The translations under genes were made by a program, and so were the position numbers. Shown here one piece after another: positions 1,424 to 22,909 of a DNA stretch of 22,957 nucleotides; the first letter of the stretch is position 1; each line of letters begins with the position of its first letter. The notes below the pieces were generated by a model that saw nothing but the letters and a program-made list of their open reading frames with translations, was not told where the DNA came from and ran no database searches. This DNA comes from a virus: IMG/VR virus record IMGVR_UViG_3300042368_000371, positions 1-22,957 of that record. One strand, 5' to 3'.

Positions 1424-2650
1424 TCACCACTTCTTCACATTGGCGATAGGGGTGAAGGTAGCGGGTTTGGATGCACCGGCCCGGCGGACTGCTTCGCAGG
1501 CGTAGCGCAAGGCATCGATCACGTGGTTTTTCTTGTCCTCCAGGACTGGCAGGATCTTGCCCGTGAGGGGGTCGGTCTTGTAGCTGTAGAGGGTGAGCTC
1601 GTCGATGGTGTGGATGCAGCGGGGGTGGACAACGATGTCGTAGTTCTTGAGAAACTCGATGCCTTCCTCCACTGATCTTGGCCCTTTGACTGCGGTCATG
1701 ATCTTGGGGAAGCCGTTGCGCTTCATGTGGCTGATGGTCTCTGGCCTGGCGGAGTCGGCCACGATGGGCCATTTCTCGGCCTCGGGCACGGTCATAAATA
1801 GTTCTGGGGTGTTCACGATCTCGCAGCCGACCATGTAGGCCTCGTAATCGATGTAGAGGGTGCGGCCAATGATGTGGCAGCGCACCAAGGTAGTGGGGTC
1901 GATGGAGAAACCCCAGTCGGCGCCGAGCCGGTGGATGGCGTCTGGTGGTGCGTCGAAGTCCTCGACCCGCCAGTTCTTGAACACACGGGTGTTGCTGTTG
2001 GTCAGGTAGCCGCCCATCCAGACGTGCTGGTATTTGTCTGGATCGCGCCTCTTGTCGTATTCCATTTCGTCTTTGAGGACGCTGGGAAACCACGGATTGT
2101 CGGTGAAGTTGACCTTCAAGACCTGGGCGTCTTTGGGTGGCGTTGGGCCACGGAGCAGGTGGTCGACCGGGTCGGAGTGCAGGCGCGGGTTCCAGGTAAA
2201 CCAGAGCTCGGACTCGGGCTTTCGTATAGTTGGCCGGAGCAGGTCGAGGCTGGTTTGGCTGAGGCTTTGTGCTTCCTCGACCCAGGCGCAGTCGTAGCCC
2301 TCCAGCGACTTGATGCTGTCGGCGGTGTGGTTTTGCATACCCTGGAAGATGATCGCCCCGTCGCCTTTGCGAGACTTGATGACGGCATCCTGCACCTCGA
2401 AGTAAGCCCCGGCATTCATGGCCTCGATCTTGGTTTCGAGCAGGCGCTTGACGGACTGGTTCAGCGACTTCTGGATCTCGCGCACGCAAACCGAGCGCCG
2501 CTTCTGGTCCATGATATGAGCCTCGATCATGAGCTCGGCAAACATGTGGGATTTGCCGGAGCCTCGGCCACCCCATGCGCCTTTGTAGCGGCTGGGGTCC
2601 AGAAGGGGCAAGGCCCATTCTGGGGTGGGGAGTTGCAAGACCTTACCCAT
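1424..2650 (-). CDS. terL: Terminase large subunit (packaging ATPase/nuclease)
   Basis: This 408-residue protein is the DNA-packaging motor that docks on the portal, pumps DNA with its N-terminal ATPase and cuts the concatemer with its C-terminal RNase H-like nuclease. The Walker A motif GGRGSGKS is at residues 27-34, the Walker B region YDCAWVEEA at about 119-127, and the coupling motif LWFTWNP near residue 150. The nuclease half shows acidic positions in GADWGFSIDPTT, in IVADSARPE and in the C-terminal VIDALRYA. Length and motif order fit the Terminase_3/Terminase_6 group of headful or cohesive-end terminases. The start at 2650 overlaps the end of terS by 8 bp, so the two are probably translationally coupled. 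Nothing appears broken. A same-strand ORF in another frame over 1383-2618 is a shadow of this gene. Confidence 0.95.
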   Translation of the reverse strand: MGKVLQLPTPEWALPLLDPSRYKGAWGGRGSGKSHMFAELMIEAHIMDQKRRSVCVREIQKSLNQSVKRLLETKIEAMNAGAYFEVQDAVIKSRKGDGAIIFQGMQNHTADSIKSLEGYDCAWVEEAQSLSQTSLDLLRPTIRKPESELWFTWNPRLHSDPVDHLLRGPTPPKDAQVLKVNFTDNPWFPSVLKDEMEYDKRRDPDKYQHVWMGGYLTNSNTRVFKNWRVEDFDAPPDAIHRLGADWGFSIDPTTLVRCHIIGRTLYIDYEAYMVGCEIVNTPELFMTVPEAEKWPIVADSARPETISHMKRNGFPKIMTAVKGPRSVEEGIEFLKNYDIVVHPRCIHTIDELTLYSYKTDPLTGKILPVLEDKKNHVIDALRYACEAVRRAGASKPATFTPIANVKKW

Positions 2651-3056
2651 TCTTGACGATCACCCGTTCGATCTTGGCGAACTCCAAGGGAGCGCCGTCG
2701 GCCCCGGTGAGTTCGTGCTTCTGAGTTTCTGCCCAGCGCATTTGAGTCTTGCTCCACCAGATGGCCGCAGTGGTGTCGCCTGCCATAACCTTCTGAAATA
2801 GGGTTTTCCCCACCTGGGCGTTGGCTTTGGCTTTGCCTGATTGCAGCTCGGTGGCGAAGTGCTTGCGCAGGGTATCGGTGTCGATGCCCTCGCGGATCAG
2901 GACTGCGATCTGCTCGATTGGGAGGCCGTAGCCGCTGAGGGCTTCGACCTGTTTGCGCTCTGGATCTGTGGGCTCGAAGGCCTTGCGGCCTGAGCCTTCC
3001 CGAGCGCCGCCGTGGGTCTGTTGCTTTTTTACAACCGATTTTTCAAGTTTTGCCAT
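2643..3056 (-). CDS. terS: Terminase small subunit (DNA recognition)
   Basis: This 137-residue protein is probably the small terminase subunit that recognises the packaging site and regulates TerL. Residues 1-30 are basic and include GGAREGSGRKAF, a typical flexible DNA-contacting leader of this group. Residues about 38-66 (GYGLPIEQIAVLIREGI then TDTLRKHF) form a helix-turn-helix. The remaining residues are a helical oligomerisation region with KTLFQKVMAGDTTAAIWWSKTQ, which is typical of phage small terminases, and a short beta-like tail. I chose ATG at 3056 rather than an upstream in-frame start at 3149 because AGGAGA sits 7 bases before it and the longer version would overlap the glycosyltransferase gene by about 90 bp. 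The stop overlaps the start of terL by 8 bp. The function is inferred from the sequence pattern and from its position before terL. Confidence 0.9.
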   Translation of the reverse strand: MAKLEKSVVKKQQTHGGAREGSGRKAFEPTDPERKQVEALSGYGLPIEQIAVLIREGIDTDTLRKHFATELQSGKAKANAQVGKTLFQKVMAGDTTAAIWWSKTQMRWAETQKHELTGADGAPLEFAKIERVIVKNG

Positions 3057-3058
3057 GG

Positions 3059-3976
3059 TCACATCTCCTGGACTGTGTTGGTGTAGCGGGACAAGAGCCT
3101 GGGCTTGCGATGCTGCTCGTCGAGGATCATGGGGACTGCGTGAGTCCATGATATTGAATGATGGATTCTCCGATCATCACGACCCATTTCGGCAATGCTG
3201 ACGCATGAAGGAGCGTAGAGAACGCTGTAAAAACTCTTGACGTAGGTTCCGAGGTCGAGGTAGATCTCGGTCAAGCCGCCAGCGTTTGCTTGAGTTTCCT
3301 TCTGCCAAAGGCGAAGCCTCGGGACGGTCACAAAAAGATGGCCACGGCGACCCCATTCGACGTACATGTTGACGTCCTCGTTGATGCGCCCCATGAACTT
3401 GACGGGCCGGTCAACTCGAAACAAAAAGGAGTTCATGACCTTGCGGCTGAATTTCCCCTTCTTGATGTGCTTGACGAAAGTGCCTTCGCCGCCACCGATG
3501 AAGTCGCCGCCCTGGGACATGGCCACGGAGTGTGCGCCGGATTCGTCCATGAAGTCGCAGAGGGCAAAGAGGAGGTCATCGAGCTTCTTGGTGTAGATGT
3601 CTTTCGTGATGTATTCGTCGTCGTTGTCTGTGGCATAGCCAAAATAACTGTAATCGTCATCAAGCTGCCAGAAGTGGGTGAGCCCGAGATCGGCTGCAAT
3701 CTTGAAGTTTTGATTGCGAGCGTAGACGACGCTGTTGCGCTTCTTGAGGTTGTCGCCGCTGTCGGTGTTGTCGATGGCCTCTTGCTTGTTGAAAACGATC
3801 ACGGAGTCGAGGCCGTAGAGCGCCAGGTATTGCTTGATCTGTTTGTCCTCGTCATCGCAGACGAGGTAGATCTCACCGGTGTATCCGTGTTTGCGGAGGG
3901 CTTCGTAGGTGTAGACGCAGTTCGCCCTGCCGTGAGTGAGGATGAAAACTGCGAAGCGCCGTTCTTCGGTGGTCAT
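3059..3976 (-). CDS. Glycosyltransferase, TET-associated (TAGT/GREB1-like) type
   Basis: This 305-residue protein has a GT-A-like glycosyltransferase layout. It opens with a Rossmann strand FAVFILTHGRA (THGR at 14-17), then EIYLVCDDED at about 35-44, a YARNQNFKIA helix at 85-94, and a DxD metal/nucleotide-sugar motif in WQLDDDYS (DDD at 106-108). FMGRINEDVNMY (194-205) supplies a candidate catalytic acid, and QANAGGLTEIY follows at 229-239. This order matches, from memory, the TET-associated glycosyltransferase family, which is thought to glycosylate hydroxymethylated bases in DNA and is related to the C-terminal domain of GREB1. The gene overlaps the ParB-fold gene by 4 bp (ATGA) and lies 2 bp before terS, so the three are co-transcribed. 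No TET dioxygenase or base hydroxymethylase is visible in the window, so the acceptor is unknown. The GT-A fold is confident; a DNA substrate is inference. Confidence 0.8.
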   Translation of the reverse strand: MTTEERRFAVFILTHGRANCVYTYEALRKHGYTGEIYLVCDDEDKQIKQYLALYGLDSVIVFNKQEAIDNTDSGDNLKKRNSVVYARNQNFKIAADLGLTHFWQLDDDYSYFGYATDNDDEYITKDIYTKKLDDLLFALCDFMDESGAHSVAMSQGGDFIGGGEGTFVKHIKKGKFSRKVMNSFLFRVDRPVKFMGRINEDVNMYVEWGRRGHLFVTVPRLRLWQKETQANAGGLTEIYLDLGTYVKSFYSVLYAPSCVSIAEMGRDDRRIHHSISWTHAVPMILDEQHRKPRLLSRYTNTVQEM

Positions 3977-4776
3977 TGGTCGCCGCCCTTCTCGCTGGCG
4001 TAGATCTTCCCCATGGCCTGGGAGAGCTTGACGTAACCGCCCGAGATGGCTTTGTCGAAGTCGATGATGACGAGGGCGCTTTCTTCCATGAGCTGCTGCG
4101 TGTCTGGGTCTGCGTGGGCGTAGAACTCTGCGATCTGCTCAAAGTCGAAGCGGATGTGCCTGGTGGCCGCCAGCAACAAAAACTCTTTGACCTCTGGCGC
4201 CAGGTCGTTGTTTTGGTGGATCTGGGCTGTCAGCTGGGTGTACTTGGCCGGATCGTAGAGGGCTGCTGTAGGTGGGCAGTCGCCGGTGGGTTGGTAGATG
4301 GGAGCGTCGATCTTCTTGGTGTATTTGCTGGTGTCGGCATCATCGTCTGGGTCTTTTGGCATGAGGGCTGCGATTTCGTCTTTGCTGAAACCGATCAAGT
4401 CCATGCCGAAGCCGAGGCCTTGCAGCTCTGTGAGCTCGAGCGCGAGCATTTGCTCATCCCAGCCTGCGTTCATGGCCAGCTTGTTGTCGGCAATGACGTA
4501 GGCGCGTTTCTTGGCATCGCTCCAGCCTTTGGCCACCATGACAGGGACTTCGGTCATCTTTAGGCGTTGGGCTGCGAGGGTGCGACCGTGGCCGGCAATG
4601 ATGCTGCCGTCCTCATCCACCAGAACAGGGGTGGTCCAGCCCCACTCTTTGATGCTGGCTGCCAGCTGGCTGATCTGTTCGTCGGAGTGGGTGCGGCTGT
4701 TGCGTGCGTAGGGCGTGAGTTTGTCGATGCTCCAGCGTTCAACCTTGTCAGCGGGATTGTGGGTTTTTGTGGTCAT
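3973..4776 (-). CDS. ParB/Srx-fold N-terminal domain protein with unknown C-terminal domain
   Basis: This 267-residue protein has two parts. Residues about 13-110 are a ParB/sulfiredoxin-fold domain: WSIDKLTPYARNSRTHS, then SIKEWGWTTPVLVDEDGSII and the hallmark AGHGRTLAA at 61-69, followed by KKRAYVIADNKLA, a stretch typical of phage ParB domains that are often fused to DNA methyltransferases. Here no methyltransferase motif follows. Instead residues about 157-255 form a different conserved-looking domain (YQPTGDCPPTAALYD, LLLAATRHIRFDFEQIAEFY, ESALVIIDFDKAI). ParB-fold domains can bind DNA and some bind or hydrolyse nucleotides. The start at 4776 has GAAGGA about 9 bases upstream and overlaps the preceding gene by 4 bp. 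Coupling to the glycosyltransferase suggests a joint DNA-modification or DNA-marking role, but this is inference. Confidence 0.8.
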   Translation of the reverse strand: MTTKTHNPADKVERWSIDKLTPYARNSRTHSDEQISQLAASIKEWGWTTPVLVDEDGSIIAGHGRTLAAQRLKMTEVPVMVAKGWSDAKKRAYVIADNKLAMNAGWDEQMLALELTELQGLGFGMDLIGFSKDEIAALMPKDPDDDADTSKYTKKIDAPIYQPTGDCPPTAALYDPAKYTQLTAQIHQNNDLAPEVKEFLLLAATRHIRFDFEQIAEFYAHADPDTQQLMEESALVIIDFDKAISGGYVKLSQAMGKIYASEKGGDQ

Positions 4777-4955
4777 GCTGCATTGTCCTTCATGTTTTGG
4801 ATTCGCGCCAGCTTCATGGCATCTTTGAGGTCGAGGCGGAGTTGCTCGTTTGCTGCCTGCTCGTCTTGAAGTCTGATGTAGACCTCGGTGGCGAACTTGG
4901 CCAAGGTGTCGTGTTGCCAGGTTGCAAAGTTGGGGGTTTCTCTTTGTTTGGTCAT
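4773..4955 (-). CDS. Small helical hypothetical protein upstream of ParB-fold gene
   Basis: This 60-residue protein is not recognised as a named family. It is charged and predicted mostly helical, with DTLAKFATEVYIRLQDEQAA and NEQLRLDLKDAMKLARI forming a heptad-like, possibly coiled-coil stretch over residues about 15-53. It has no membrane segment, cysteines or signal peptide. Its stop overlaps the ParB-fold start by 4 bp (ATGA), so the two are probably co-translated, and it is the first gene after the origin-like region. The Shine-Dalgarno sequence is weak (AGGC about 9 bases upstream). It may be an accessory or dimerisation partner of the ParB-fold protein or simply a small leader gene of that operon. 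Confidence 0.65.
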   Translation of the reverse strand: MTKQRETPNFATWQHDTLAKFATEVYIRLQDEQAANEQLRLDLKDAMKLARIQNMKDNAA

Positions 4956-4961
4956 TTGAAT

Positions 4962-5159
4962 CTGCCTGTGGATAACTTTTTTGATGGTTGGCTGGGTTGG
5001 TTGGTGTCAGTTCGCGCTGCATCGGTCGGTAACAGGTAACCCCATCTAAAGATGGGGGTTACCGAAAGTTACCGAAAACCGCTGTTTTTGCCCCTGGTAA
5101 CAATTACGTTTTTTTACGTTACAGTTACCAGTTACCGCAATACTGCCTGTGGATAACTT
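4962..5159. repeat. 17-bp direct repeat carrying DnaA boxes
   Basis: The same 17 bases, CTGCCTGTGGATAACTT, occur at 4962-4978 and again at 5143-5159, 181 bp apart. They bracket the hexamer array. Each copy contains a perfect DnaA box, and the second copy is followed immediately by a third box at 5159-5167. The identity extends well beyond the 9-bp box, so this looks like a duplicated site rather than chance. Confidence 0.75.
5028..5136. repeat. GTTACC/GGTAAC iteron-like array with hairpin
   Basis: GGTAAC occurs at 5028-5033, 5035-5040 and 5096-5101. GTTACC occurs at 5058-5063, 5068-5073, 5124-5129 and 5131-5136, with GTTACA at 5118-5123. A 10-bp direct repeat, GTTACCGAAA, is at 5058-5067 and 5068-5077. 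The segment 5035-5046 pairs with 5051-5063 to form a stem of about 12 bp with one bulged base and a TAAA loop. No T-run follows the stem on either strand, so it does not look like a terminator. The array is probably a multi-copy protein-binding site. Confidence 0.7.
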
Positions 5160-5173
5160 GTGGATAACTTTGC

Positions 5174-7192
5174 TCATGGCATTGATTTCCGGATCAGCAT
5201 TGCGCTGGCCTGAACTTGGTCGATGACGATCCAGCCATGTTCAAAGGCCTCGATGATTTGTGCTGTGAGCAGGTCTGCGATGGGTTTTCCTGGCACGCTT
5301 GGCTTGATGTATTGCTTGGCTGAGGCTTCGCTGACGTCCAGCTTTTGCACGAAATAGTCCATGATGGCCGACCGGCTGATATAGGGTAAACCATTACGTT
5401 CTTCAGCACCTGATGACCACCAAGCGTTTTCAAAGGTCTTGCGATGGGTGTCCAGCTTGCTGTCTTTTCTGTCGGCTTTGACTGGTGCTGAGGCCTCCAC
5501 AACCACGGCGCTTGTTACTTGCTGGTCATCCTCATCGCGCCAGCCTAAGATCTCGACTGTGTGAAGTTCCACGAAAACGGTCTCGGCAAGTTCTGCGTCT
5601 TTGGACTTGCGCTGGACGATTTGCATGGGCTGGTCGTCTTTGCCTGGGATGATGCTGATCTCGATGTCGAGAGCGCCGCGCCATGCTGATGATCCCCTGG
5701 CCCTGTGCTGGGCTTCGTCTGACACGCCGGTGTGGTGCACCAAGATCACTGAGCAGTTGAATTCCATCATAAGGGCGTTGCAGGCATCCAGCATGGTCTT
5801 GGCATCTTGGGCTGAGTTCTCATCGCCTTGAAGGAAGCGGTGCAGGGTATCGACCACGATGACGCTGGGGCGCTCTTGGAGAATCCTGACCTGCTCGACC
5901 ACCTTGAGGTAGCCGGTGGGGGTGTTGAGATCGCAGCCGTCTTTGGAGAGCCACATCTTGAGCTTGCCTGCTTGATGGTGGTGCTTCCAGGCTGCGACCC
6001 TGCCACGCAGACCGTGATGGCCTTCGCCTGCGAGATACACCACATTGCCTGGCCTGACCTTGTGGCCTGACCAGTCCTCGATGCCACTGGCCATCCTGAG
6101 ACACCAGTCCAACACGACAAAGGTCTTGCCGCCGCCGCTGGGCCCATGGACCATGACCAAGGCCTGGGACTGAATCCACTTCTTGACCAGCCAGCTGATG
6201 GGGGAGGGCTGGGAGCAGAAGTCATCCGCCGGGATGAGCCAGTCATCATGGGAGGGCATGAGGAGGCTGGCCAAGTCGTGCCCTGCTTGGGCGTAGTCGT
6301 TGGCGTCCATGCCCTCGATGGGTGGGATGACGACTTTGGCCCCGTATTTTGCGCTGGCCTGGTCTGCGTAGCGCTGGCCGACGCCGTGTTTGTCATGGTC
6401 TGCCACGATAACGATGTCCTGATTTTCACCGTACATCTCGCGCAGGCTGGCTGTGACTGGCACTAAGCTGCTGGCGCTGTAGGCCACGATGCAAGGGCGG
6501 CTGGTGGTTTCGTAAATTGTCGCAGCTGTGGCAAAGCCTTCTGCCACATAGAGCGTGCCTGGTTCGTCCATTGTGCCGACCATCCAGAATTTGCCGCCTG
6601 ATTTTCCGCCTGGGTGGTAGAGCTTGCCACCGTCCTCGTCAATGTATTGCAGGGTGCTGAGTTTGCCCTCTTGATCGTAGAGGGGGACCATCAAGCGCCC
6701 GTCCCCGGTGATGCGCACGCCATGGGTCTGGATGCCTTTGCGCTTAAGGTAGGGATGATCGGGGTGAGCTGCGCCGCCACTGAGCCAGATCTTCTCAACT
6801 GTCTCGCTGGCGACTTGGTGCTGGCGCTCTTGTGCAGCTTCGCGCAAGACCTTGGACTCATTGATGCGCCTTGCGTGGGCCATCTCTTCAAACTCTGTGA
6901 GCTTGCGGCCAACGTCTGCACGCCATGTGACTTCCATGCCCATGCGCCAGCAACCAAACCGGCCTGCTGGGATGCCATCCCCAAAAACCAGATACCAGCC
7001 TGGCTTGTCGATGCCTGGCGTTCCCTTGGTTCCTGACTTGAAGCGGTGGATCTTGCCGTCCATCAGGATCTCGTCTGGTGGTTCTAGGCCTGCTGCACGC
7101 ATTGCATCAATGAGCTGTGCTTCTGGTGGTGCAACCAGTTTCTCTGGTGGTGGTGCCCATGGGCCGCCGAGGACTTTGGAGAGGTCAGCCAT
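5174..7192 (-). CDS. TOPRIM primase / RepA-like helicase
   Basis: This 672-residue protein combines primase and helicase modules. Residues 1-200 resemble the N-terminal part of phage and plasmid primase-helicases, although no zinc finger is visible. A TOPRIM domain spans about 210-300, with GTLYVAEGFATA (catalytic Glu 218) and IVIVADHDKHG (Asp 265 and 267). A RecA-fold, RepA/AAA_25-type ATPase follows: Walker A HGPSGGGKT at 349-357, YLAGEGHHGLRGR at 386-398, Walker B VIVVD at 444-448, HHTG at 486-489 and the RGSSAWRGALD element at 499-509. The C-terminal 100 residues look like a winged-helix DNA-binding domain (ISRSAIMDYFVQKLDVSEASA). It probably unwinds the fork and primes or loads at the adjacent origin-like region. 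The ATG at 7192 overlaps the HTH gene by 8 bp, and the stop lies just before the DnaA-box region. Confidence 0.9.
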   Translation of the reverse strand: MADLSKVLGGPWAPPPEKLVAPPEAQLIDAMRAAGLEPPDEILMDGKIHRFKSGTKGTPGIDKPGWYLVFGDGIPAGRFGCWRMGMEVTWRADVGRKLTEFEEMAHARRINESKVLREAAQERQHQVASETVEKIWLSGGAAHPDHPYLKRKGIQTHGVRITGDGRLMVPLYDQEGKLSTLQYIDEDGGKLYHPGGKSGGKFWMVGTMDEPGTLYVAEGFATAATIYETTSRPCIVAYSASSLVPVTASLREMYGENQDIVIVADHDKHGVGQRYADQASAKYGAKVVIPPIEGMDANDYAQAGHDLASLLMPSHDDWLIPADDFCSQPSPISWLVKKWIQSQALVMVHGPSGGGKTFVVLDWCLRMASGIEDWSGHKVRPGNVVYLAGEGHHGLRGRVAAWKHHHQAGKLKMWLSKDGCDLNTPTGYLKVVEQVRILQERPSVIVVDTLHRFLQGDENSAQDAKTMLDACNALMMEFNCSVILVHHTGVSDEAQHRARGSSAWRGALDIEISIIPGKDDQPMQIVQRKSKDAELAETVFVELHTVEILGWRDEDDQQVTSAVVVEASAPVKADRKDSKLDTHRKTFENAWWSSGAEERNGLPYISRSAIMDYFVQKLDVSEASAKQYIKPSVPGKPIADLLTAQIIEAFEHGWIVIDQVQASAMLIRKSMP

Positions 7193-19237: not shown

Positions 19238-20998
19238 TTAGAAGTACGCAACTTCTTTCCAGCGGTCATCTCTGGAGCTGTAGGTTAACCACAATTCGTC
19301 TGTGTCAGTCACGACTCTAGTTGCCGCATTGAGGTCTATTCCTTTGTTGTTAGTACCGTTTGCAGTACCACTTATATATGTGATAGTTTCACCTGCTTTG
19401 GCGTAAATACGAACAATTTGACCGGGGGGAAAGTTATTAAGAAAGTTGATACGGGTTACGCTATCCAATGGCGCGGTATCTGACTGTGCCTCAATTTGAA
19501 CTAAATTTGAAACAATTTCAGGCACGGTTCCTGTGCTTATTACCAATACGCTGGGAACGTTATTGGGGATTAACGCAAAATCAAAAGGAGTTCCCCCTGT
19601 TCCAAGATACTCAACACCGTCAATAAAATACCGCGATGTTTGGGACTGACAAGTCACAAGTTTTGTTGATCCGGTTGTTGACGCAGTGGCAAAGTCTCCT
19701 TGGAAATCAAGAACGGACGCAGGGACCGTAAAAGAAACTGCCTGTGGAACGCCATAAGTGCCGGAAAAAATTCTCGGTGTGTATACGCGATGAGATACAG
19801 TGTTCCCCGAAAACAAAATGCTGTTTGTTAATGACGAAAAATATGGATGGTCAAATGTATATCTATTTCCAGCAGCAAAAATACCACCCGTTGGCGTTGC
19901 ACTGGCAACTCTTGGTGAACCACCAGACGTTACAGAATTTGCATACTGTTGATCTTCAACATCAATAATGTCAAAAATTGCGCCATTGACAACAATATAT
20001 ATCTGATGGTTAGTAATTCGAACTGCGCTGTTCCATGCACAACCAAGTGCTTGAAAGTTCATCGCATATAATTGTTGGGGGGAGTTGGTTTGCCCAGGCG
20101 CTCCTACAACAAGGGCGTTACCGCCGCACTCAAGGGCACGGACATTAAACAAAGACCAGTGAAATGGTGCGCCGCCTATATTTGTTGCTCCACTGGTTGT
20201 TCCATCGTCAAACACATACCCGTGCCGCTTGGAGTCTTGCACGGTTACTTGATGGTACTCACTGAGTTCACAACCATACCGAGAATTCAGACCGTCCGTG
20301 GGCTGTTGAAAAATGTAGACATCTTCAAGCCACTGGCGCGAAAGAACTACCGCAGCACCAGCAGGCGTGTCGTCCCCGCCCATGAGAATTCCGTGGCCCG
20401 TGGTCGTAGTGGCTGCGTATCTGGTTGGCGTTGACCTAAAAGCAACGCCGATAATTTTTGGGCTACGTTGTTTGATTTGCAAAACGGGACCGCTGGTGTG
20501 CGATCCCAGAATTACAGTTTTGCTTGTGTGCCCACCATCACCATTTAGAGTTTGGTTTCCTCTGTTAAAGATTAAAGGACTGCTGGTCAAATAATTGCCA
20601 GAAGGCATGTACACGCTGACCGATGCGTCAATGGCTGCCTGAATCGCAGCAGTGTCATCCGTTACCCCATCACCAACAGCGCCAAAGTCTTTGACGTTGA
20701 CTGGATCAGAATCAATTACCAATAGGTCATCATATAAAACGCTACCATTCCTGTTTGTTACTTTGATGGAATAGCTGGGAGTTGTATAGATCTGACCTAT
20801 TGAAGTTCCGTTGAGTGGATAGCCTCCGCGAGTCCTAATTGGCTGCGTGGCTGGCTGTGTAAATGCTTGATCCCAATAGGCTTGTTTCTGGTTTGTCACT
20901 GGGTCAAGATTTGACTGGCCAATCCAAACGTAGCCAGCCTCGAGGGGCTGGCCATCAATGTCGTTGAAGATCGGGAAGGCTGTAGAGATTGCAGTCAT
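19238..20998 (-). CDS. Tailspike 2: P22-like head-binding anchor plus pectate-lyase-type beta-helix
   Basis: This 586-residue protein begins [20 protein letters not shown] and carries a P22-tailspike-like head-binding domain over residues 1-95 ([34 protein letters not shown]). Directly after it, [20 protein letters not shown] at about 101-120 starts a pectate-lyase-3/Gly28-type right-handed beta-helix that would bind and cut or deacetylate host surface polysaccharide. The C-terminal region (about 440-586) is beta-rich and ends [22 protein letters not shown] lies 6 bases upstream of the ATG. It is a paralogue of the neighbouring tailspike in the first 120 residues only. Catalytic residues cannot be chosen by eye, and the sugar target is unknown. 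Base composition is AT-rich. Confidence 0.88.
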
Positions 20999-21016: not shown

Positions 21017-22909
21017 TTATGGTGCGATCAGGCCAAGATTGACTAACGCCTGATGCACAGCGGCAATTGTTACCGGAACGCCAGTTTGACGGGCTGTAGC
21101 GGCGGCATTGTAGAACCCCAAAAGGTTTGTGCCTGTGCCAATGTTGACGGTGCCTGTTGATTTGGCAATGACAGCCACACCTGCTGTTGCATCGCCTTCA
21201 GCGGTGTACGCGACCAATTGCCCAGTTACGTTGCCTGCGGTAACTGGGTAATTGACGTTTGCCTGCGTAATAACTTGCCGGGTTGGTTCAAAAATAACGC
21301 CGCCAGGTGTGCCGTTAACGATGGTGGCCGCACCACCAGCGTATGGGTTGAGCAAAGGAACCGAGCTAAACCGAACGATGTTGGTGGCGGTGACATTGAT
21401 AGCGCCGTTACCTGCGCTGCCTCGGCTGTACGATTCAAAAATGCCGCTGCCAATCCATAGAGTGTTGAAGGTGCCGTCAACGCGCACAGCGTGGGTTTCC
21501 GACAAGACGGAATAGACGTTGCTGACTTGCACCAAGTGGTTGCTGCCGGACGAGATGTCGATGACGGCAGAACCAGGCAATGCAGTTGCTGGGGAGGTGG
21601 GGGGCCACGCTTGACCCAAGTGGAACAAGTTGGAGATCTGCAAGTGAGCGTTGCTGCTGGAGTCCACAACAATAGCCCGACCGCAGAAGTCGGAGTAAAA
21701 ACTGTCGATCATGATCACTTTGGCCGAGCCACCGTAGGTGCTGACAGTGACAAACAGACTAACGGCTACCGCAAACGTAAAAATGCGGTCCATCCAAAGC
21801 CCATCAACGCGGAACAAAGTGATTTCAACGCAGTTGGCTTGCTGCCATTGCAAAACCGAATCAGCTTCGCTCCAGTACGTCCAAGCATGAAGTCCGTCAA
21901 ATTTGCCGATGTCGTAGATCCGGTCAAAAAAGAACCCACGGTAAAAGAACTGACCGGTAATGTTTTCATACTGAGGACGAACCGCAAAATCGGTTAGAAC
22001 GCCGCGATAGACGTTGTGGAAATGCACCCGGTTCAGGTACAAAGTGCCCACGGTGCTTTCGTTGCGGATAACCCAGTCGCGGACCGCAGGAGTCCAACCC
22101 GGCCCTGGTGTTGAGTGGCCTTCTTGAAAAATCGCAATGTCAAACAGACCCGACGATTTCCCAAGGTTTCCGGTAAAACTGACCAACGCGCCTGTGGTCG
22201 AGGCGTGGATCAACCAAGTGCCCTTTTCCGGCTTAGTGATGGGGCGTGCGTTGTCAAAATCAAAAAAGCCTTGACCAACAAAACGAACTGACCCGGTAAC
22301 AAACAGAGTTCCGACAACTCGGTAGCTCTTTGCGCCAAAGTGCAGTTCTATTTGTTCGCTGTTCTGCGCCTGAACGTAATCGATGGCGGTTTGGATTGCA
22401 GCGGTGTCATCTGTAACTCCGTCACCAACAGCGCCAAAATCGTCCACGTTGACGATCTGGCGCATTTTGTCTTGAGCTGAAATGGGGTCAGCACCAGTGC
22501 CTGCTTGAGTAAACCCGATCCAATCAGAACCGGTGTTCCCAGCAAGGCTTTGAACTGTACCGACTTGTCCTTTGAAGCCTGTGAAGGCTACACCGGAGGC
22601 TTGTGCGCCGATGCCGGTAGCCTCTGGGAAATTGTAGACCATCGTCCCCTTGCTGTCCTGTACCAAGATGCTGAAATCAACGCCATCGACGTAGACCTGG
22701 GCTGGAGTTCCAGAGTTTGAGATGTAGCCATTGATCGTGCGCAGTGGCTGTGCTGCTTGGATGGTCAAGGCTTCGTCAAAATACACCACGACAGGATTTA
22801 TCTGGGGGTTTAGATTCGGTTGGCCAATCCAGACGTAACCATTGTCCAGTGGCTGCCCGTCACGGTCTTGAAAGACCGGGAAGGGGACTTGAATCGAGAG
22901 TGCGGACAT
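21017..22909 (-). CDS. Tailspike 1: head-binding anchor, linker and pectate-lyase-type beta-helix
   Basis: This 630-residue protein begins MSALSIQVPFPVFQDRDGQP and shares the head-binding anchor (NGYVWIGQPNLNPQINPVVV, AQPLRTINGYISNSG) with the next gene. Unlike that gene, it has a 56-residue linker of the form GFKGQVGTVQSLAGNTGSDW...FTQAGTGADPISAQDKMR, common in phage tailspikes, before [21 protein letters not shown] long beta-helix follows. The C-terminus ends with GTNLLGFYNAAATARQTGVP and a short helix (AAVHQALVNLGLI), a terminal motif seen in many phage virion proteins. AAGGAG precedes the ATG at 22909. It probably binds and degrades a surface glycan as a trimer attached to the portal/tail complex. 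A second, different tailspike lies 18 bp downstream. Confidence 0.9.
   Translation of the reverse strand: MSALSIQVPFPVFQDRDGQPLDNGYVWIGQPNLNPQINPVVVYFDEALTIQAAQPLRTINGYISNSGTPAQVYVDGVDFSILVQDSKGTMVYNFPEATGIGAQASGVAFTGFKGQVGTVQSLAGNTGSDWIGFTQAGTGADPISAQDKMRQIVNVDDFGAVGDGVTDDTAAIQTAIDYVQAQNSEQIELHFGAKSYRVVGTLFVTGSVRFVGQGFFDFDNARPITKPEKGTWLIHASTTGALVSFTGNLGKSSGLFDIAIFQEGHSTPGPGWTPAVRDWVIRNESTVGTLYLNRVHFHNVYRGVLTDFAVRPQYENITGQFFYRGFFFDRIYDIGKFDGLHAWTYWSEADSVLQWQQANCVEITLFRVDGLWMDRIFTFAVAVSLFVTVSTYGGSAKVIMIDSFYSDFCGRAIVVDSSSNAHLQISNLFHLGQAWPPTSPATALPGSAVIDISSGSNHLVQVSNVYSVLSETHAVRVDGTFNTLWIGSGIFESYSRGSAGNGAINVTATNIVRFSSVPLLNPYAGGAATIVNGTPGGVIFEPTRQVITQANVNYPVTAGNVTGQLVAYTAEGDATAGVAVIAKSTGTVNIGTGTNLLGFYNAAATARQTGVPVTIAAVHQALVNLGLIAP

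What the first reader, a model, noticed from the sequence alone, without database searches (positions are those of the whole stretch)
3059..4955. Glycosyltransferase plus ParB-fold pair between origin-like region and terminase: possible DNA-glycosylation module
Sequence: a GT-A protein (THGR, WQLDDDY, GRINEDVNMY, QANAGGLTEIY) overlaps by 4 bp a ParB-fold protein that lacks the methyltransferase usually fused to this domain, and both are coupled to a small coiled-coil gene and to terS. Family knowledge: TET-associated glycosyltransferases are proposed to act on hydroxymethylated DNA bases and occur in phages. Inference: the pair may glycosylate phage DNA, with the ParB-fold protein selecting sites. 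The oddity is that no TET, C5-methyltransferase or dCMP/dUMP hydroxymethylase is visible in this window, so either the partner lies outside it, the host supplies it, or the acceptor is not hmC. Placement beside terS also allows marking of DNA for packaging.
Basis: partly seen in the sequence, partly recalled or inferred. Interest (0 to 1): 0.78.

Follow-up and report, generated by a model that had tools for sequence, protein, structure and literature searches.

The report
Phage DNA-glycosylation module with unknown acceptor
A small phage carries a sugar-attaching enzyme locked to a targeting protein in a genomic slot where its close relatives carry other DNA-modifying enzymes, so it very probably decorates DNA with sugar, yet neither it nor its complete relatives encode a known enzyme that makes the hydroxylated base such sugars are normally attached to.

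Summary
3059-3976(-) is a TAGT glycosyltransferase (PF20691, 114.8 bits). It overlaps by 4 bp a ParB-domain protein at 3973-4776(-). (1) The ParB protein ends in an unnamed ~115-residue domain (CTD) that is the glycosyltransferase's real partner. All 63 newly fetched contigs found through CTD alone carry a TAGT within 1 kb, and CTD also occurs without ParB. (2) The locus is an exchangeable DNA-modification slot. In contigs fetched through the ParB domain alone, 78 of 78 informative ones have a DNA-modifying enzyme behind it: 39 N6/N4 methyltransferases, 26 CTD+TAGT, 10 Mom, 3 C5-type. TET dioxygenases occupy it in two terminase-scan sisters and in actinophages. DNA is therefore the likely substrate. 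No TET was found in 68 CTD-TAGT records (positive controls 2/2); C5-methylase in 3 of 52, thymidylate-synthase/hydroxymethylase in 1 of 52; complete isolates (c5, jlb1, HHTV-2, NTR1) have none. The acceptor is thus not phage-made hmC by any recognisable route. Terminase adjacency is shared by all slot occupants, so a packaging role is not supported. No biochemistry exists. New variant of a known kind; interest 0.66.

The parts
3059..3976 (-). TAGT glycosyltransferase (GT-A fold), 305 aa
   Evidence: PF20691 114.8 bits; phrog_842 226.9 bits; GT-A structure matches such as SpsA and collagen galactosyltransferase (model pLDDT 62.5)
3653..3661 (-). codons of the DDD metal/nucleotide-sugar motif (aa 106-108)
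   Evidence: invariant in 22 relatives
3973..4776 (-). ParB_N + CTD protein, 267 aa; 4-bp overlap with TAGT
   Evidence: ParB_N 30.6 bits; phrog_620 226 bits over aa 9-255; model pLDDT 74.8, Noc/ParB structure matches
4495..4743 (-). ParB_N domain (aa 12-94): part shared with sister phages that carry other DNA-modifying effectors
3991..4335 (-). CTD (aa ~148-262), unnamed helical domain, the constant partner of this TAGT group
   Evidence: Y152, P159, Y161, F199, R206, A216, Y219, E231, D239, A243, G247 invariant in 78 representatives under 75% identity
4773..4955 (-). small 60-aa gene in front of the ParB gene; also present in front of ParB-methyltransferase genes, so not specific to the glycosyltransferase
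   Evidence: no Pfam/PHROG match; present in L204, L207, L211
2643..3056 (-). terminase small subunit (downstream neighbour, not part of the module)
   Evidence: phrog_309 59 bits
1424..2650 (-). terminase large subunit (downstream neighbour)
   Evidence: Terminase_3 108.6 bits
4956..5173 (.). origin-like intergenic region: three exact DnaA boxes and GTTACC(G) repeats (neighbour, not part of the module)

Best explanation
The pair is a DNA-modification effector unit. TAGT (GT-A fold, DDD motif) transfers a sugar from a nucleotide-sugar donor to phage DNA. The CTD of the ParB protein binds or activates TAGT, or prepares its acceptor. The ParB_N domain, where present, places the complex on DNA, as it appears to do for the DNA methyltransferases, Mom proteins and TET dioxygenases that sit behind near-identical ParB domains at the same spot in sister phages. 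The likely benefit is protection of phage DNA from host nucleases. Shown: protein families, near-obligate CTD-TAGT linkage, exchange of effectors behind one ParB domain, absence of known acceptor-making enzymes. Inferred: DNA as substrate, CTD-TAGT contact, anti-restriction role. Unknown: the acceptor atom. It is not hmC/hmU made by a recognisable phage TET, C5-methylase or thymidylate-synthase-type hydroxymethylase.
For: Family; the T6 enzyme that adds a second sugar to glucosylated hmC in DNA is a PF20691 member (PMC13216743; 37.2 bits). Linkage: CTD-seeded scan, 63 of 63 newly fetched contigs have TAGT downstream on the same strand; 28 of 28 isolated-phage records with CTD also have TAGT; in the virus contigs the only TAGT loci without CTD upstream start at the contig end. 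Conserved in phages of hosts as far apart as E. coli, Lactobacillus, Nocardia and a haloarchaeon. Slot exchange: sister phages with the same terminase (several also with the same primase and small gene) carry ParB-N6/N4 MTase, ParB + C5-type MTase, ParB + Mom or ParB + TET there. ParB-seeded scan: 78 of 78 informative loci have a DNA-modifying effector. ParB_N tree: 18 effector changes (minimum 4), at least 4 TAGT changes forced by starred branches. ParB tails are effector-specific (CPxCG knuckle with C5 and with most Mom, CTD with TAGT). Actinophages have ParB-TET just before terminase. Tailoring-type genes sit inside some modules: radical SAM, methyltransferase, cytidylyltransferase-phosphatase, second TAGT.
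Against: No nucleoside analysis or enzyme assay exists. No acceptor-forming enzyme is recognisable, so the chemistry is unexplained. TAGT shares no BLAST-level similarity with T6 TAGT. The eukaryotic homologue GREB1 is reported to act on a protein (own knowledge). Slot exchange is indirect evidence. The ParB_N tree has 135 columns for 108 rows, so many forks are unresolved.
Confidence: 0.78

Rival explanations
1. Conventional route (a variant of the main reading): TAGT acts on hydroxymethylated pyrimidines like T6 TAGT, and the hydroxymethyl base is made by an unrecognised phage enzyme or by the host.
For: The only biochemically characterised family member works on glucosylated hmC, and its gene overlaps the TS-family gene in front of it in T6. 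One Vibrio relative has a thymidylate-synthase-family gene.
Against: 0 of 68 CTD-TAGT records have TET, with both positive controls ringing; C5-methylase in 3 of 52 and thymidylate-synthase family in 1 of 52. The complete isolated phages c5, HHTV-2, NTR1 and jlb1 have none. Hosts range from E. coli to Haloarcula, so one shared host supply of hmC is unlikely.
Confidence: 0.15
2. The pair glycosylates a protein or RNA (for example ParB/CTD itself, terminase or a capsid protein).
For: GT-A enzymes mostly act on glycans or proteins; structural neighbours include collagen galactosyltransferase and SunS.
Against: Exchange with bona fide DNA-modifying enzymes behind the same ParB domain. Terminases next to it belong to several unrelated families, so no single structural target is conserved.
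Confidence: 0.12
3. The module marks DNA for packaging, working with terminase.
For: TerL-family proteins lie within three genes downstream in at least 29 of 41 diverse loci; in Lactobacillus phage c5 the pair starts 90 bp from the record's cos end.
Against: The same position holds methyltransferases, Mom or TET in sisters, most close terL relatives have no TAGT (63 without vs 6 with), and Vibrio phages and L090 carry the pair beside replication genes.
Confidence: 0.04

Closest known systems
T6/T2 beta-glucosyl-HMC-alpha-glucosyltransferase (PF20691)
   Same: Same Pfam family; in T6 the preceding gene also overlaps TAGT by 4 bp
   Different: T6 partner is a TS-family gene (annotated thymidylate synthase; dCMP hydroxymethylase by position, own knowledge) and the phage makes hmC; here the partner is ParB-CTD and no hydroxymethylase is found. 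No CTD was detected in the T6 stretch read and there is no BLAST-level similarity
ParB-DNA methyltransferase fusions of phages (phrog_498)
   Same: ParB_N domain up to 92% identical to the window's, same slot, same upstream small gene and terminase in several
   Different: N6/N4 methyltransferase domain fused behind ParB instead of CTD plus a separate glycosyltransferase gene
ParB + TET/JBP modules of actinophages (Nigel, Margaery; Tonitrus thymidine hypermodification, PMC11955845)
   Same: ParB gene, then effector, then terminase
   Different: TET dioxygenase oxidises a base; no CTD detected and the effector is not a glycosyltransferase
CmoX carboxymethyltransferase loci (PMC12783734)
   Same: ParBc-domain protein often encoded nearby; its function in this context stated there as unknown
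   Different: Carboxymethyl handle on cytosine rather than glycosylation

Membership tests
TAGT (PF20691) | Profile match above curated cut-off | tested here: met
   114.8 bits vs 27.5
TAGT (PF20691) | GT-A fold with DxD-type motif | tested here: met
   DDD invariant; GT-A structural neighbours, model confident mainly in the N-terminal half
TAGT (PF20691) | Glycosylates a DNA base | not testable with these tools
   needs LC-MS or enzyme assay
TET-associated DNA modification pathway | TET/JBP dioxygenase in the same genome | tested here: not met
   0 of 68 CTD-TAGT records; L254 and L256 ring as positive controls; the window's own phage is a fragment
T-even type hmC glucosylation | TS-family dCMP hydroxymethylase in the same genome | tested here: not met
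   1 of 52 records, absent from the complete genomes c5, HHTV-2, NTR1, jlb1
T-even type hmC glucosylation | alpha-GT or beta-GT giving the first sugar | not tested
   PMC13216743 reports 288 of 753 phages with solitary TAGT; not searched here
ParB-linked phage DNA-modification slot | ParB_N domain followed by DNA-modifying effector | tested here: met
   78 of 78 informative ParB_N loci; the window is one of the CTD+TAGT type
ParB partition protein (ParABS) | ParB HTH/dimerisation C-terminus and partner ParA | tested here: inconclusive
   Only the N-terminal domain matches ParB, TIGR00180 is below its cut-off; ParA was not searched for

The most novel reading that the evidence does not exclude
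CTD + TAGT puts a sugar on DNA without any prior hydroxymethylation by a known enzyme, either directly on a canonical base (for example an exocyclic amine) or on a handle created by the CTD itself, and effector-specific ParB tails let one ParB domain be swapped between glycosylation, methylation, Mom-type and TET-type chemistry.
Probability: 0.45. Interest if true: 0.9.

Novelty: new variant of a known kind. Interest (0 to 1): 0.66.

Why it matters
A 2026 paper notes that many phages carry solitary TAGTs without the glucosyltransferases that make their known substrate and calls them potential novel transferases (PMC13216743). This work gives a large group of them a defined partner domain (CTD), a genomic logic (one ParB domain, interchangeable DNA-modifying effectors at one slot) and named isolates with complete genomes in which to look for the base (Lactobacillus phages jlb1 and c5, haloarchaeal virus HHTV-2, Nocardia phage NTR1). 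If the acceptor is not a hydroxymethyl base, it would be DNA glycosylation by a route not yet described. It also suggests what the ParB domain next to phage DNA-modifying enzymes does, stated as unknown in PMC12783734: a shared platform.

Tried and rejected
Marking for packaging: rejected as main role (shared slot, other locations). CTD as metalloenzyme with H207/H221/E231/D239 ligands: considered, weakened because H207 and H221 are replaced in L089 and in the Porphyromonas relative. Profile search of CTD against PDB sequences gave only weak, mostly repeat/helical-protein matches (best E 0.0084). Structure search of the full ParB-CTD model matched mainly ParB-fold proteins. PDB sequence search with the TAGT profile: nothing. 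Plasmids: no TAGT match. PADLOC: only a type II methyltransferase model hitting the ParB part. Literature search for ParB + Mom + methyltransferase + terS: nothing; the key 2013 prediction paper on these families is not in the library. The C5-type enzyme in L200/L242/L287/L302/L308 has the SPPC motif of CmoX, but by eye the diagnostic Arg position reads Met (GMSVPP), so it was not called CmoX. First reading that L294 had no effector was wrong: it is Mom (186 bits).

Full report
OBSERVATION. The window is a 22,957-base virus record. On the minus strand the order is primase/helicase (5174-7192), an intergenic region with three exact DnaA boxes (4967, 5148, 5159; 0.13 expected), a 60-aa gene (4773-4955), the ParB-domain gene (3973-4776), TAGT (3059-3976), terS (2643-3056) and terL (1424-2650). 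TAGT scores 114.8 bits against PF20691 (cut-off 27.5). The ParB_N match covers only residues 12-94. The TAGT gene is under clear purifying selection (104 synonymous vs 10 non-synonymous codon differences to L013).

THE CONSTANT PARTNER IS A C-TERMINAL DOMAIN. Among isolated phages 35 records encode a TAGT relative and 28 of them carry the CTD, with no CTD record lacking TAGT. Of the other seven, two are Porphyromonas phage records (phage005a/b of one strain); in the one read, CTD is detectable by profile (41.9 bits). Four are LL-Ku and Ld17 records with TAGT in two tblastn pieces; in LL-Ku, the one inspected, no ParB gene precedes it. The last is a Vibrio phage TAGT with a 108-residue N-terminal extension. 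In metagenomic virus contigs a scan seeded with CTD alone gave 63 newly fetched contigs, all with TAGT on the same strand within 1 kb; 57 had ParB_N in front, and stand-alone CTDs occur (L154, L169, L177, and L006, L090, L091 from other scans). Some of these contigs are near-duplicates or already known from the TAGT scan, so the effective number is smaller. Across 78 CTDs under 75% identity, Y152, P159, Y161, F199, R206, A216, Y219, E231, D239, A243 and G247 never change. Within the family the ParB_N part can be unrecognisable by BLAST while TAGT stays at 63% (L078), so ParB is the most replaceable piece.

THE SLOT. Contigs sharing the window's large terminase (80 best) were examined upstream of the terminase genes. 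Six had TAGT and 63 did not. Many of the latter have the same ParB domain followed by a different DNA-modifying enzyme: N6/N4 methyltransferase in the same polypeptide (L204, L207, L259), a separate C5-type methyltransferase (L200, L242; about 166 bits), Mom (L246 137.9 bits; L239 147.5 bits with the ParB region not visible), or TET/JBP (L254 37.1 bits, L256 38.7 bits, cut-off 34.9). Others in that set have no ParB at all, so the slot is not always filled. A scan seeded only with the window's ParB_N gave 80 contigs. Two end inside or just after ParB; of the other 78, 39 have fused N6/N4 methyltransferase, 26 CTD+TAGT, 10 Mom and 3 C5-type. Effectors were assigned by local phmmer/hmmsearch from seeds, with Pfam confirmation of most seeds and of L294. 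On a ParB_N tree of 108 sequences the effector changes at least 18 times (minimum possible 4; shuffled mean 44), and well-supported branches force at least 4 TAGT changes; the alignment is short and many forks are open. The tail of ParB goes with the effector: CTD with TAGT, a CPxCG knuckle with C5 and with most Mom, other tails with TET. Isolated actinophages show the same order with TET: ParB, TET, terminase (Nigel, Margaery), and Tonitrus with a proposed thymidine hypermodification system (these TET matches are below the Pfam cut-off at 26.5-32.2 bits).

ACCEPTOR. DNA glycosylation by known phage enzymes starts from a hydroxymethyl or hydroxy pyrimidine (own knowledge; T6 case in PMC13216743). 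TET was absent from 20 and 48 CTD-TAGT records while both control contigs rang. C5-methylase was absent from 20 records and present in 3 of 32. The thymidylate-synthase/hydroxymethylase family was found in 1 of 20 and 0 of 32. Many virus records are fragments, so the strongest cases are isolates with complete genomes: Lactobacillus phage c5 (31.8 kb), jlb1 (38.3 kb), HHTV-2 (52.6 kb) and NTR1 (65.3 kb), all negative for all three. In T6 the gene overlapping TAGT is TS-family; here it is ParB-CTD. Accessory genes inside other CTD-TAGT modules (radical SAM in 9 of the classified loci, methyltransferase, phosphatase-cytidylyltransferase fusion, second TAGT) fit a decorated group being built or transferred, but do not identify the acceptor.

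MECHANISM AND CONFIDENCE. Best reading (0.78): CTD docks or primes TAGT, ParB_N brings the complex to DNA, and TAGT adds a sugar to DNA, probably as protection against host nucleases. Family, linkage, slot exchange and absence of known hydroxymethylation enzymes are shown; substrate, contacts, donor, acceptor and benefit are inferred. Protein/RNA glycosylation and a packaging mark are less likely. A conventional hidden hydroxymethylation route (0.15), which would be a variant of the main reading, remains open.

NOVELTY. TAGT and ParB-linked DNA modification are both known (PMC13216743; PMC12783734). I found no held paper describing the CTD, its linkage to TAGT or effector exchange behind one ParB domain; the library lacks the main 2013 prediction paper and preprints, so earlier description cannot be ruled out.

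Noticed in passing
window 4967-5167: Three exact DnaA boxes plus GTTACC(G) repeats between the primase gene and the 60-aa gene: a probable phage replication origin.
   Followed up: partly
L254:438-2071 and L256:986-1864: Sister phages with TET/JBP behind the same ParB domain; L254 has an additional unassigned 279-aa gene between ParB and TET.
   Followed up: partly
L059-L067 group, e.g. L060:2943-3896; L169:5700-6689: Radical SAM enzymes (SPASM type in L060) inserted in CTD-TAGT modules.
   Followed up: partly
L164:2951-3892: Histidine phosphatase fused to a cytidylyltransferase between CTD and TAGT, suggestive of nucleotide-sugar supply.
   Followed up: no
L089:638-2328: Two TAGT genes in tandem behind one ParB-CTD gene, as if two sugars were added in sequence.
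   Followed up: no
L200, L242, L287, L302, L308: C5-type enzymes behind ParB carry an SPPC motif like CmoX carboxymethyltransferases, but read GMSVPP where CmoX has its diagnostic Arg (by eye).
   Followed up: partly
L346:90-938 (Lactobacillus phage LL-Ku): TAGT match in two pieces and no ParB-CTD gene in front, next to cos; probably a decayed module.
   Followed up: no
window 19238-20998 and 21017-22909: Two consecutive large genes with related N-termini (FPxFxDxDGQPLxxGYVWIGQxNL), probably paralogous tail spike proteins.
   Followed up: no
phages collection, e.g. NC_011044, NC_051587: TET/JBP proteins are annotated 'queuine tRNA-ribosyltransferase', and TAGTs of phages without hmC genes are annotated 'beta-glucosyl-HMC-alpha-glucosyltransferase'; misleading labels.
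   Followed up: partly
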